A DNA stretch of 64,000 nt from Pseudomonas azotoformans (lineage in GTDB: Bacteria > Pseudomonadota > Gammaproteobacteria > Pseudomonadales > Pseudomonadaceae). The notes beneath the pieces are model-generated. The model did not search any database. It worked only from the letters and a program-made list of their open reading frames with translations, and had not been told where the DNA came from. Both the position numbers and the translations under genes were made by a program. Where the stretch lies: contig NZ_CP014546.1 of the NCBI RefSeq assembly GCF_001579805.1, positions 2,852,001 through 2,916,000 on the forward strand, read 5' to 3'. Below, piece after piece: positions 39,561 to 42,490 of this stretch (within the stretch, counting starts at the first letter, position 1; every line of letters begins with the position of its first letter).

Positions 39561-40460
39561 ATGAGAATCCTCGGCATTCTGTGCCTGCTACTCACATTGA
39601 ACGGCTGCAGCTCGCTGCTGTTCTACCCCGAGCCCGGCCTGCCGTTCACGCCGGAAAAAGCCCACCTGCACTACCGCGACGTTAGCTTGACCACCGCCGA
39701 CGGCGTGAAGCTCCATGCCTGGTGGTTGCCGGCCAAGCCCGGTGTGCCGCTCAAGGGCACGGTGCTGCATTTGCATGGCAACGGCGGCAACCTGGCCTGG
39801 CACCTGGGCGGCAGTTGGTGGCTGCCCGAGCAAGGCTACCAAGTGCTGTTGCTGGACTATCGCGGTTATGGCTTGTCGCAAGGCAAACCCTCGCTGCCCG
39901 CGATCTATCAGGACGTGGACGCGGCGTTCAGTTGGATCGACCAGGCGCCGCAAACCCAGGGCCAGCCGCTGATTATTCTCGGCCAAAGCCTGGGCGGGGC
40001 GTTGGCGGTGCACTACCTGGCCGCCCATCCGGAGCGCCAATCCCAGCTCAAGGCCCTGGTGTTGGACGGCGTCCCCGCCAGTTATCGTGACGTAGGACAA
40101 TTCGCCCTGAGCACTTCCTGGTTAACATGGCCGTTTCAGGTGCCCCTGTCCTGGCTGGTGCCGGACGGCGACAGTGCAATCTATGCCATGCCCCAACTCA
40201 CAGGCGTGCCGAAGCTGTTGTTCCACAGCCTGGACGACCCGATCGTGCCGGTGGCCAATGGCATCCGCCTCTACCAGGCCGCGCCACCACCCCGGGTGCT
40301 GCAGTTGACCCGGGGCGGACATGTGCAGACCTTTGCCGACAAGACCTGGCAAACGGTGATGCTGCGCTACCTGGACGACCCGCAGCACTTCAACGGCTTG
40401 CGCCGCCTGGGCGAGATTCCGAACTTTCCTAAAGTTGATTCATCAGAGAGCCCGCAATGA
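39561..40460 (+). CDS. Lipoprotein alpha/beta hydrolase
   Basis: A 299-residue hydrolase with a lipoprotein signal (lipobox LTLNGC, Cys16). The fold shows LHLHGNGGNLAWH (oxyanion region), the nucleophile elbow GQSLGGAL (Ser about residue 138), an Asp in FHSLDDPIVP and His in GGHVQTF, completing a Ser-Asp-His triad. It is similar to the BEM46/YfhR-type serine hydrolases. ATG at 39561 begins the signal peptide; a GTG at 39537 would add eight residues before it and spoil it. The stop overlaps the next ATG (ATGA). Confidence 0.88.
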   Translation: MRILGILCLLLTLNGCSSLLFYPEPGLPFTPEKAHLHYRDVSLTTADGVKLHAWWLPAKPGVPLKGTVLHLHGNGGNLAWHLGGSWWLPEQGYQVLLLDYRGYGLSQGKPSLPAIYQDVDAAFSWIDQAPQTQGQPLIILGQSLGGALAVHYLAAHPERQSQLKALVLDGVPASYRDVGQFALSTSWLTWPFQVPLSWLVPDGDSAIYAMPQLTGVPKLLFHSLDDPIVPVANGIRLYQAAPPPRVLQLTRGGHVQTFADKTWQTVMLRYLDDPQHFNGLRRLGEIPNFPKVDSSESPQ

Positions 40461-40783
40461 GCGAAGAACGCAACATGATCCCGCTGATCCTTACCGGTAT
40501 CGGCACCATCATCGGCACCGTTGGCTGCCTGTGGTTCTACGGTTACCTGCACTTTGCCAAGCCGGAAGATGCCTTGCTGCTCAGCGATTTCACCATGCTC
40601 AAGACGGTGCCGGGCGAGGACTACAAGATCTCCCTGACCCCGGCCGCGCAAGTGGCGCAGTGCGTGGATGGCGTGCTGGTGATGTTCGACACCGAGCAGA
40701 AAGGCCTCAGCGGCGTGTTGGTGAACAACAAGAAGCAGGCTGTGCGATGCATGGGGCAGGAAACCCCGCAATTGCAGCAGTGA
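40457..40783 (+). CDS. Small single-span membrane protein, function unknown
   Basis: A 108-residue protein with one membrane helix at about residues 8-28 (IPLILTGIGTIIGTVGCLWFYGYL) and a soluble domain after it. The four-base overlap with the hydrolase gene means coupled translation. I recognise no family. The transcript would end in the hairpin at 40895-40929 or earlier. Confidence 0.75.
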   Translation: MSEERNMIPLILTGIGTIIGTVGCLWFYGYLHFAKPEDALLLSDFTMLKTVPGEDYKISLTPAAQVAQCVDGVLVMFDTEQKGLSGVLVNNKKQAVRCMGQETPQLQQ

Positions 40784-40863: not shown

Positions 40864-40891
40864 GGAACCCGCCTGCCGTGCTCACCACAGA
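40864..40891 (+). promoter_or_regulatory. Hrp box 1: candidate HrpL/RspL-type ECF sigma promoter
   Basis: GGAACC at 40864-40869, a 15-nt spacer, then CCACAGA at 40885-40891. This is a full match to the Hrp box (GGAACC-N15/16-CCACNNA) that drives type III secretion genes in plant-associated pseudomonads. It lies 60 bp upstream of the harpin-like ORF. A second full match lies 550 bp further on, which makes a chance match very unlikely. Function is inferred. Confidence 0.8.
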
Positions 40892-40894
40892 TCA

Positions 40895-40929
40895 TGGACT
40901 GATTGGATTTACCAATCGGTCCATTTTTT
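40895..40929 (+). terminator. Hairpin with T tract just after Hrp box 1
   Basis: TGGACTGATTGG at 40895-40906 pairs with CCAATCGGTCCA at 40912-40923 (one G-U pair), followed by TTTTTT. It looks like the terminator of the upstream four-gene unit. A transcript from Hrp box 1 would start inside the left arm, at about 40897-40900, so the structure may then act as a 5' hairpin instead. Confidence 0.8.
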
Positions 40930-40951
40930 CATGACGCTGGAGTGAGCAAAT

Positions 40952-41293
40952 ATGGCGGGTATAAACGCAATGCCGGGTGTAGGCAGCATGGGCGGTGGTG
41001 GACAGGTTGCCGGTGGCCCTCAACAGAACCAGGGGCTGGATCAGCAGATCAAGGACGTTCAAAGCAAAATCAAAGAGATGCAGTCACAAGGTGCTAAAGG
41101 CGGCCAGGGCAGCGAGGGCGGAGGTGGCCTCGACGAACTGATGAAACTGTTGGAGAAACTGCTCGCCCAAAAAGCTCAAGGTGGGCAGGGTGCGCAAGGC
41201 GATCAAGGCGCGCAGGATGGCCAAGGTGGCGGCCAGGGTCAGGGCCAGATCCAAATGCCGGAGACCCAAGGCACAGGCAAGGTCGGCGGTTAA
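40952..41293 (+). CDS. Harpin-like Gly/Gln-rich small protein, candidate type III secreted
   Basis: A 113-residue protein with about 29% Gly, many Gln, and no Cys, Arg, His, Phe, Tyr or Trp. The first 29 residues have no acidic residue and Ile is at position 4, as in many type III substrates. Two amphipathic helices are predicted by eye: LDQQIKDVQSKIKEMQ (29-44) and LDELMKLLEKLLAQKA (60-75), separated and followed by Gly/Gln-rich linkers. This composition and the leucine-rich helix resemble harpins of the HpaG/PopA/HrpZ kind. GGAG 9 bp upstream supports the ATG. A Hrp box lies upstream and a terminator follows. Harpin identity is inference, not a recognised family match. Confidence 0.72.
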   Translation: MAGINAMPGVGSMGGGGQVAGGPQQNQGLDQQIKDVQSKIKEMQSQGAKGGQGSEGGGGLDELMKLLEKLLAQKAQGGQGAQGDQGAQDGQGGGQGQGQIQMPETQGTGKVGG

Positions 41294-41306
41294 ACGCCAC
41301 CTCTCG

Positions 41307-41333
41307 AAAACCGCCCTTTCAGGGCGGTTTTTG
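41307..41333 (+). terminator. Terminator after the harpin-like gene
   Basis: AAAACCGCCCT pairs with AGGGCGGTTTTT around TTC, a compact rho-independent terminator about 14 bp after the stop. It separates this gene from the next Hrp box, so each small gene is its own unit. Confidence 0.93.
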
Positions 41334-41419
41334 CGTGCTCAATCCGCTATTCAGCCTGTAACGACGTGAGTGGCGTACTACAGGGTGTCGCACGTCATGC
41401 AGATGAAATGGAAATGTCT

Positions 41420-41447
41420 GGAACCGGTTCGACTTTAATGCCACATA
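41420..41447 (+). promoter_or_regulatory. Hrp box 2: candidate HrpL/RspL-type ECF sigma promoter
   Basis: GGAACC at 41420-41425, a 15-nt spacer, then CCACATA at 41441-41447: again a full match to GGAACC-N15-CCACNNA, with the same spacer as box 1. It lies 32 bp before the 64-residue ORF at 41480. Confidence 0.82.
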
Positions 41448-41479: not shown

Positions 41480-41674
41480 ATGAAAATACATATTCCTGTA
41501 TTGGAAAACATGTTGGCCATGGCAAGGCAGCATGTGGCGCTGGAACAGGAAGCCGCTCGCAGGTACAAGCGCGATCAAGGCAGGGACGAGCATGCGAGCG
41601 CGAAGATTGAAATGCCAGCCGAGGACACGAATCGCACTATCCAGTTTGACGAGCCGAAAAAAAACCCACCGTGA
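41480..41674 (+). CDS. Small charged protein downstream of Hrp box 2, function unknown
   Basis: A 64-residue protein: a hydrophobic-helical start (MKIHIPVLENMLAMARQHVA), a strongly charged middle (EQEAARRYKRDQGRDEH) and a Pro/Lys-rich tail ending in KKNPP. No family recognised. The GAGG next to ATG 41480 is too close to be ideal; ATG at 41510 (MLAMARQHV) is an alternative start. The stop codon lies in the loop of the terminator at 41661-41684. Placed by its promoter in the putative Hrp regulon; it could be a chaperone, regulator or small secreted protein. Confidence 0.6.
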   Translation: MKIHIPVLENMLAMARQHVALEQEAARRYKRDQGRDEHASAKIEMPAEDTNRTIQFDEPKKNPP

Positions 41675-41684
41675 GGTGGGTTTT
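41661..41684. terminator. Bidirectional terminator between the 64-residue ORF and lptF
   Basis: AAAACCCACC pairs with GGTGGGTTTT around GTGA. The TGA stop of the upstream ORF is in the loop. A and T runs on both sides let it serve the convergent lptF transcript too. Confidence 0.92.
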
Positions 41685-41703: not shown

Positions 41704-42490
41704 TCAGTTGGCAACGGAAGACCGTGGCTTGACGGGCTGGTTGTCGTTGGAGATGGTCACTTCAACGCGGCGGTTCATGGCACGGCCCGAGACGCTGCCG
41801 TTGTCGGCAACCGGGTATTCCTTGCCGTAACCCTGGGTCACGATGCGCGAGATATCCACGCCTTGTTGAGCCAGTGCGCGTTGTACCGAAGCGGCACGAC
41901 GCTCGGACAGGCTTTGGTTGTACGAATCGGAACCGGTGCTGTCGGTGTAGCCTTCGACGATCACTTTACGGTCCGGGTTATCGCGCAGGAACTGAGCCAG
42001 CTTGGTGATGTTCACGAGGCCGCTGGATTTCAGGTCGGACTTGTTGGTGGCGAACAGCACGTCACCAAAGGTGACCAGCGTGCCGCGATCGGTCTGCTTG
42101 GCGTTCAGGCTGTCCTGCAGTTGCTTGATCTGCGCATCGCGGGCATCCAGCAACGCACGGGCACGTTCGTCGCCGGCGTTTTTCAGCTTGGCTTCGGATT
42201 CACGTAGCACGATGGTGTCTTTGGCGACTTCAACGCGCTGGTTGGTCAGGTAGGGCCAGTTGGTCGACTTTCTTCTGGTCTTCCTTGTCGCGGTAGGCCT
42301 TGTCAGCCTTGTCCAGCCATTCGCTGGCGTCCTTGGTTTCCAGGGCCGCGAGCTTGGTGGCTTGCGGGTTGGTCTGCAGGGAGGAGAAGTTGGTCCGCGC
42401 GTTTTCCAGGTTCGCGTTTGGCGGGGTGGAGCAGGCCGCCAGTGCAACGCTCATCGCCAGCAGGGCAGGGATCATCAATTGTTTACGCAT
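41704..42490 (-). pseudogene. lptF: OmpA-family lipoprotein LptF, frameshifted
   Basis: The N-terminal part (from ATG at 42490) has a lipoprotein signal with lipobox ALAAC (Cys20) and a DUF4398-like helical region. At 42253-42257 one extra base after GGCC turns the expected KVDQLAYLTNQRVEVAK into a shifted frame. The rest continues in the other frame: a helical stretch, then an OmpA-like peptidoglycan-binding domain (VTFGDVLFATNKSDL, VEGYTDSTGSDSYNQSLSERRA, GYGKEYPVA) ending at 41704. Restored length is about 261 residues, matching LptF, an outer-membrane lipoprotein for envelope stability controlled by AlgU. The preceding DUF4398 gene is its usual operon partner. The indel may be a sequencing error. 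Confidence 0.88.

What the first reader, a model, noticed from the sequence alone, without database searches (positions are those of the whole stretch)
40864..41447. Two perfect Hrp boxes 550 bp apart define a small, isolated type III regulon locus
GGAACC-N15-CCACAGA (40864-40891) and GGAACC-N15-CCACATA (41420-41447) both match all defined bases of the HrpL-type consensus with the same spacer and the same strand, and each is followed by a small ORF with its own terminator. Eleven fixed bases twice within 600 bp is not expected by chance. No T3SS structural genes are in the window, so this would be an outlying part of a HrpL/RspL regulon.
Basis: partly seen in the sequence, partly recalled or inferred. 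Interest (0 to 1): 0.88.

Follow-up and report, generated by a model that had tools for sequence, protein, structure and literature searches.

The report
Remote, fast-changing type III secretion slot
Two switches of the bacterium's protein-injection system sit far from its main genes and each drives a tiny protein; related Pseudomonas species keep such switches at this same spot while the proteins behind them change very fast.

Summary
The motif alone is weak evidence: genome-wide it occurs at control frequency (8 vs 9 matches). Pairing, position and conservation carry the case. The genome encodes an SBW25-type rsp/rsc type III system about 0.53 Mb away, with an RspL-type ECF sigma factor, an RspR-type activator and an AvrE-family protein. 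The locus lies between a PA3694-family gene and an OmpA-family gene. In the genus sample, 47 of 47 genomes with RspL at 75% identity or more have a box there; 0 of 3 with RspL at 70-72%, 0 of 19 with HrpL-type and 0 of 24 without the sigma do. This is clade-confounded, and P. karstica is a counterexample. Slot products are hypervariable (median 26% identity; flanks 96-97%), mostly acidic, Gly-rich and Cys-free. A 5'-UTR hairpin follows box 1. Best reading: RspL-driven genes for secreted accessory proteins, ORF1 acting like a harpin in a lineage that almost always lacks a Pfam Harpin gene. Secretion and function are inferred. Single members were already annotated as type III candidates.

The parts
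40457..40783 (+). PA3694-family gene, conserved left flank of the slot
   Evidence: NCBIfam NF053721 E 4.8e-36; left flank in relatives
40864..40891 (+). Hrp box 1 (GGAACC-N15-CCACAGA), inferred RspL promoter of ORF1
   Evidence: a box precedes ORF1 homologues
40894..40924 (+). 13-pair hairpin at the inferred 5' end of the ORF1 mRNA, followed by a T run
   Evidence: dG -23 kcal/mol, z -4.5; in 20 related leaders 91.1% of cells paired, 6 of 14 pairs with changes on both sides; listed as terminator-like
40939..40942 (+). Shine-Dalgarno GGAG of ORF1
   Evidence: sequence; three of the four columns invariant and one nearly so in A3
40952..41293 (+). ORF1: 113 aa, 29% Gly, 19.5% Gln, no Cys, no aromatic residues, pI 4.89; two predicted helices 24-48 and 57-79
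   Evidence: dN/dS 0.13-0.22 against three relatives
41305..41333 (+). Terminator-type hairpin after ORF1
   Evidence: dG -20.3, z -4.9
41420..41447 (+). Hrp box 2 (GGAACC-N15-CCACATA), inferred RspL promoter of ORF2
   Evidence: a box precedes all 18 ORF2 homologues found
41480..41674 (+). ORF2: 64 aa, one predicted helix 6-39; N-terminal module shared with the one-gene slot variant
   Evidence: dN/dS 0.09-0.33
41661..41684 (+). Terminator-type hairpin of ORF2, overlapping its stop codon
   Evidence: dG -16.0, z -3.5
41704..42490 (-). OmpA-family lipoprotein gene, conserved right flank (two overlapping ORFs in the window)
   Evidence: right flank in relatives; the family name is recalled, no domain search of it was run

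Best explanation
The two boxes are promoters for the RspL (HrpL-type) sigma factor of an SBW25-type rsp/rsc type III secretion system encoded about 0.53 Mb away. Each drives its own short mRNA for one small protein. The site is a dedicated slot between the PA3694-family gene and an OmpA-family lipoprotein gene. In the P. fluorescens subgroup it carries one to three box-driven genes, with conserved flanks and promoters and fast-diversifying products. ORF1 most likely leaves the cell through this T3SS and acts outside or at the host cell like a harpin (an assistant of effector delivery) in a system that lacks a PF04877 harpin gene; ORF2 is a second small accessory protein of the same system. Shown: boxes, sigma factor, T3SS cluster, slot conservation, hypervariability, purifying selection between close relatives, a conserved 5'-UTR hairpin. 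Inferred: RspL-dependent transcription (about 0.93), secretion by the T3SS (about 0.7), harpin-like helper role of ORF1 (about 0.45).
For: The own genome has a T3SS cluster with SctV (TIGR01399, 836 bits), SctJ, an SctW-like protein, an HrpT-family protein, an ECF sigma factor and a sigma54-type activator, and an AvrE-family protein nearby (PF11725, E 1.2e-159). ORF2 is in 18 of 298 and ORF1 in 17 of 298 genus genomes; the 20 carriers in union all have RspL of the SBW25 type. A box is in the slot of 47 of 47 genomes with RspL at 75% identity or more, of 61 of 80 named loci, and of 0 of 43 genomes with an HrpL-type sigma or none. A profile of the one-gene variant hits 13 of 79 genomes, once each and always beside the PA3694-family gene (places compared). 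[quoted passage not shown] PF04877 Harpin is found in all 35 HrpL-type genomes (one below the curated cut-off) but in 1 of 50 SBW25-type genomes, and that one has a second sigma copy. The leader hairpin is conserved and covaries in part.
Against: Neither ORF1 nor the class C variant matches a harpin model (in one search only 25 of 57 families were shown). Four genomes with an RspL at 70% or more have an empty slot: G198, G244, G256 and P. karstica, so the slot is not indispensable. The link of slot and T3SS is confounded with clade: the 46 best PA3694 matches of the genus sample are all in SBW25-type genomes. ORF1 has only 3 Ser in its first 50 residues and ORF2 one. The ORF1-family profile is only weakly alike to the one-gene variant (72.5%, 27 columns, low complexity). 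The slot gene of G176 is 5'-truncated. In the slide control the +1 slide has more cells with double changes (13) than the hairpin itself (10).
Confidence: 0.6

Rival explanations
1. The slot genes encode true injected effectors (small host-acting proteins), and their diversity reflects host recognition.
For: RspL-type boxes; N-terminal pattern (I, L, V or P at position 3 or 4 in 22 of 27 class A and 15 of 18 class C); one homologue is named 'putative type III secretion effector protein' (P0065).
Against: Serine-poor N-terminus of both window ORFs; mostly disordered Gly/Gln-rich sequence with helices only; no fold match (best E 1.7); composition resembles extracellular harpins.
Confidence: 0.25
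2. ORF1 is a filament, needle or translocon subunit missing from SBW25-type clusters.
For: A published comparison reports that SBW25 and ORh26 lack annotated needle and translocon components (hrpA1, hrpF, hrpZ1 and hrpK1 missing in ORh26) and suggests unidentified genes (PMC12157919, passages); two-helix prediction; fast divergence.
Against: A small gene already sits at the rspA position behind a box in the cluster; slot products vary in length and helix content and carry Gly-rich tails, unlike a polymer subunit that must fit one apparatus; four carriers of the sigma have no slot gene.
Confidence: 0.12
3. ORF2 is not secreted but a small chaperone or regulator for ORF1 or for the apparatus.
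For: Helical, not Gly-rich; often next to ORF1 (15 of 18).
Against: ORF2-type genes stand without ORF1 in G101, G099 and G238; the N-terminal module is fused to a Gly-rich part in the one-gene variant.
Confidence: 0.2
4. The boxes are chance matches or belong to another ECF sigma factor and the ORFs are not genes.
For: Genome-wide box counts equal the control.
Against: Boxes kept at the same site in 47 genomes; substitutions concentrate at third codon positions (for example 11, 9, 33 in ORF1); dN/dS well below 1.
Confidence: 0.03

Closest known systems
HrpL/RspL regulon outliers: Hrp-box candidate effectors of the P. fluorescens group (PMC3390384, PMC2997014, PMC6647874)
   Same: Hrp-box-driven uncharacterised genes away from the T3SS cluster; a BG33R protein of the ORF2 family is already named a putative type III effector, and the WH6 box of PFWH6_1252 differs by one base from some slot boxes
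   Different: The passages I read list single genes; here they are one fixed slot with conserved flanks, hypervariable modular products and a conserved 5'-UTR hairpin
Harpins (HrpZ/RspZ, Pfam PF04877; Hpa1 of Xanthomonas)
   Same: Gly-rich, Cys-free, acidic, under T3SS control (harpin traits from the abstract of PMC3571957)
   Different: No match to PF04877; only about 110 aa; outside the hrp/rsp cluster; secretion and plant response untested
Hrp pilin/needle proteins (HrpA/RspA)
   Same: Small, no Cys, highly divergent (partly recalled)
   Different: The rspA-position gene is in the cluster; slot products vary in helix content and have long tails predicted as disordered

Membership tests
HrpL/RspL regulon | Hrp-box promoter upstream of the gene | tested here: met
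   box-to-start distances 60 and 32 nt, against 31-63 nt in the named slots
HrpL/RspL regulon | HrpL-type ECF sigma factor in the genome, in a T3SS cluster | tested here: met
   no HrpL-specific family model matched, the type is judged from ECF domains and position
HrpL/RspL regulon | Box conserved in relatives | tested here: met
   47 of 47 genomes with RspL at 75% or more (one of them with GGAACG); 61 of 80 named loci
HrpL/RspL regulon | Transcription depends on the sigma factor | not testable with these tools
   needs 5'-end mapping with and without rspL
Harpin | Match to the harpin family PF04877 | tested here: not met
   own genome no match; window ORF1 no match; class C members none
Harpin | Gly-rich, Cys-free, acidic | tested here: met
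   ORF1: 29% Gly, 0 Cys, pI 4.89
Harpin | Secreted by the T3SS, heat-stable, elicits a plant response | not testable with these tools
   bench assays
[quoted passage not shown]
   ORF1 (I at 4, none acidic) and ORF2 (I at 3, one acidic)
Type III effector | Ser-rich first 50 residues (over 10%) | tested here: not met
   3 and 1 Ser in the first 50
T3SS needle/pilin subunit | Gene at the hrpA position of the cluster | tested here: not met
   ORF1 is about 0.53 Mb from the cluster; another small gene holds that position

The most novel reading that the evidence does not exclude
The slot encodes the missing harpin/translocation-helper of SBW25-type T3SSs, kept at one chromosomal site far from the apparatus genes, where a modular gene (ORF2-type head, Gly-rich helix body, conserved tail) is repeatedly split, fused and replaced while its RspL promoter and a 5'-UTR hairpin stay fixed. 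That would be a diversifying secreted-protein cassette, perhaps driven by host recognition, with a leader RNA that sets mRNA stability or translation.
Probability: 0.3. Interest if true: 0.78.

Novelty: new variant of a known kind. Interest (0 to 1): 0.6.

Why it matters
T3SSs of plant-associated P. fluorescens strains such as SBW25 are reported to work although needle, harpin and translocon genes are not annotated; a 2025 paper names this as open and suggests yet-unidentified genes (PMC12157919, passages). The slot gives a short, testable list: one to three small genes per species, at a predictable address, with ready-made natural variation. It also shows how to find regulon members that homology searches miss, because flanks and promoter are conserved while the protein is not.

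Tried and rejected
Chance boxes: rejected by conservation, though genome-wide counts alone could not reject it. Known families for ORF1, ORF2 and slot relatives: Pfam and NCBIfam gave no credible match (NCBIfam for the two window ORFs only); scattered coiled-coil matches look like low complexity. PDB by sequence and by fold, ORF1 only: nothing. Rfam: nothing over gathering score. Plasmid-borne relatives of the locus: none. The hairpin as terminator of the upstream gene: not favoured, because it goes with box-1-type genes and its T run is not conserved, but not excluded. A DNA operator instead of an RNA hairpin: less likely because several positions hold G-U pairs in many sequences, not excluded. 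Positive selection between close relatives: not seen. Presence of the slot as independent proof of T3SS linkage: rejected as clade-confounded. The named set overlaps the unnamed genus sample (for example L134 and G090 give the same RspL coordinates), so it is not an independent replicate.

Full report
What is in the window. Two boxes, GGAACC-N15-CCACAGA at 40864-40891 and GGAACC-N15-CCACATA at 41420-41447, lie on the + strand with 528 nt between them. Box 1 precedes ORF1 (40952-41293, 113 aa) and box 2 precedes ORF2 (41480-41674, 64 aa). Each ORF ends in a strong hairpin of terminator type. Left of them is a PA3694-family gene, right of them an OmpA-family lipoprotein gene on the other strand (family name recalled).

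Chance. In the window two matches are rare (expected 0.15), but over the genome the pattern is no more frequent than its control (8 vs 9; 15 vs 21 for the N16 form). The motif by itself proves little; position and conservation must carry the argument.

The regulator exists. The genome (6.86 Mb, one contig) has three FHIPEP genes. One lies in a cluster at 2.350-2.368 Mb holding SctV, SctJ, an SctW-like protein, an HrpT-family protein, a CesT-type chaperone (below its curated cut-off), a sigma54-type activator (RspR position) and an ECF sigma factor of 183 aa (RspL position). An AvrE-family protein (E 1.2e-159) lies about 4 kb beyond the sigma gene, just behind a box that lacks the last A of the consensus. 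A box precedes the small gene at the rspA position. The names rsp and rop follow the literature on SBW25 and its relatives (PMC6647874 and PMC4700148, passages). A second T3SS-like cluster lies at 5.656-5.672 Mb.

Conservation of the locus. ORF2 was found in 18 of 298 genus genomes (six of these matches run past the relative's own, earlier stop, and reads them as shorter ORFs) and ORF1, as a profile, in 17 of 298; 20 genomes in union. A box stands before every one of the 18 ORF2 homologues, and before ORF1 in each of the 15 of those 18 that have it. RspL matches 85 of 298 genomes: 50 of SBW25 type (70-100% identity; one match covers only residues 81-183) and 35 of HrpL type (42-56%). All 20 carriers are among the 50.

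A slot rather than a gene. In the 30 SBW25-type genomes without a detected ORF1 or ORF2 I read the PA3694-OmpA intergenic region: 27 have a box there (26 with GGAACY-N15/16-CCAC, one with GGAACG), as a rule with a small ORF behind it; 3 (G198, G244, G256, RspL 70-72%) have a short spacer. So 47 of 47 genomes with RspL at 75% identity or more carry a box in the slot. None of 19 HrpL-type genomes and none of 24 genomes without RspL does (13 and 15; two more, G020 and G023, gave no PA3694 match; in 5 of these 43 the OmpA end was not found and at most the nearest 500-900 bases were read). In 80 named loci (the best 80 of 328) 61 have boxes and 19 none; an ORF was called behind the first box in 60 of 61. 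RspL was sought in 50 of those 80 genomes: all 31 slot-positive ones have it at 75% or more (one with a stop inside); of the 19 slot-negative ones P. karstica has RspL at 85% with an empty 85-bp spacer, two have an HrpL-type sigma (47%), 16 none. The named and unnamed sets overlap, and the 46 best PA3694 matches in the genus sample all belong to SBW25-type genomes, so slot and T3SS are inherited by one clade; their association counts as about one event, with P. karstica against it.

The products. Between 60 named loci (1770 pairs) the first slot ORF has a median identity of 26%, against 96% for PA3694 and 97% for the last 150 residues of OmpA. Between the window and three close relatives ORF1 has dN/dS 0.13-0.22 and ORF2 0.09-0.33, against 0.00-0.03 for PA3694: real, constrained coding genes. 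My script sorted 72 ORFs from the named loci by simple rules into class A (27, ORF1-like and others), B (21, mostly ORF2-like; one Gly-rich ORF fell in by length), C (18), D (3) and N (3). Class C joins an ORF2-like head, a Gly-rich body with an amphipathic helix, and a tail of the type MMPDSDNGRKI. Profile comparison supports the shared head (94.6%, E 7e-8); the link of ORF1 to class C is weak (72.5%). A class C profile finds 13 of 79 genomes, one place each, in the slot; it does not find the ORF1-type or short ORF2-type products. Classes A, C and D are Gly-rich in 48 of 48, Cys-free in 44 of 48 and acidic in 47 of 48. Predicted structures: ORF1 two helices in otherwise disordered sequence (mean pLDDT 57.5, a poor model), ORF2 one helix (72.3). 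Fold search with ORF1 gave nothing.

The leader hairpin. Directly behind box 1 lies a 13-pair hairpin (dG -23, z -4.5). In 20 class A leaders 91.1% of cells pair and 6 of 14 pairs show changes on both sides (2 of 500 shuffles reach 6; none reaches the covariation score). The share of paired cells and the covariation score exceed all slid versions, but the +1 slide has more cells with double changes (13 against 10), and related sequences can exceed shuffles without structure. Class C/D leaders share a shorter stem with a 3-nt loop (7 pairs, 3 with double changes, 33 sequences). A simple stem test was significant in 31 of 61 first boxes and 0 of 17 later boxes. The hairpin would sit at the 5' end of the transcript if transcription starts about 5-8 nt behind CCAC (recalled rule). 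Likely roles are mRNA protection or translation control; premature termination is possible.

Harpin question. PF04877 Harpin occurs in 37 of 298 genomes (36 over the cut-off): all 35 HrpL-type ones, G197 (which has a second sigma copy) and G273 (no RspL match). The other 49 SBW25-type genomes, including this one, have none. PMC4700148 (passages) states that SBW25 lacks hrpZ1, and PMC12157919 (passages) that needle and translocon components are not annotated in SBW25 and ORh26. A Gly-rich, Cys-free, acidic, RspL-controlled protein is a natural candidate helper. It fails the sequence test for PF04877 and is not filed there. Not every slot holds one: some hold only an ORF2-type gene (for example G101, G099, G238), and G198, G244 and G256 have neither harpin nor slot gene. 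Both facts weaken a strict replacement story.

What was known. Protein databases already name one ORF2-family member 'putative type III secretion effector protein' and several members 'type III secretion protein'. PMC2997014 (passages) lists PFWH6_1252 behind a box that differs by one base from some slot boxes, so it is probably in this slot (inference). PMC3390384 (passages) reports 14-15 further Hrp-box genes in three strains. Searches showed, in the parts listed, no paper whose title or abstract start describes a fixed hypervariable slot; only open-licence papers are held.

Noticed in passing
own genome G000:C1:6760478 (L031:1573-1758; L212): A perfect N16 box precedes another 61-aa Gly-rich ORF with a tail (DMMPPAPSKIEV) like the slot class C tail, next to what looks like a superoxide dismutase gene (judged by eye).
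   Followed up: partly
L001, L006, L008, L018, L026, L027 (own genome): Perfect boxes precede uncharacterised ORFs of 128-460 aa without Pfam or NCBIfam matches, though some of these boxes lie inside longer open frames; by eye L006, L026, L027 and L029 share a repeat-like segment.
   Followed up: partly
own genome 5.656-5.672 Mb (L014); box at L029: A second T3SS-like cluster, with a box-like site before a 135-aa ORF at its edge.
   Followed up: no
L142 (P. lactis), L171, L175; L128, L129: In some slots a further box precedes a 164-165-aa ORF with NNGN-type repeats; a second ORF of that kind follows in L128 and L129.
   Followed up: partly
window 41704-42490 (-): The OmpA-family lipoprotein gene is one frame of 261 aa in two relatives read in full but two overlapping ORFs here: a frameshift or a sequencing error.
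   Followed up: no
own genome 2346450-2349448 (L012): Beside the rsp cluster and the AvrE-family gene lie a methyltransferase-like gene and a long ORF that looks like a terpene synthase fused to a P450 (by eye only).
   Followed up: no
L085 (G121): The slot holds a broken second copy of the PA3694-family gene and a second, imperfect box with a Gly-rich ORF, suggesting tandem duplication.
   Followed up: no
L074 (G176): Box and tail remain but the start of the slot gene is gone.
   Followed up: partly
L189 (P. kitaguniensis): The RspL match contains a stop codon although the slot gene is intact in reading frame.
   Followed up: no
many class C slots, e.g. L174, L157: A CGTAAG in the box spacer and a CTTACG some 40-50 nt downstream form a loose inverted repeat around the promoter (by eye).
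   Followed up: no
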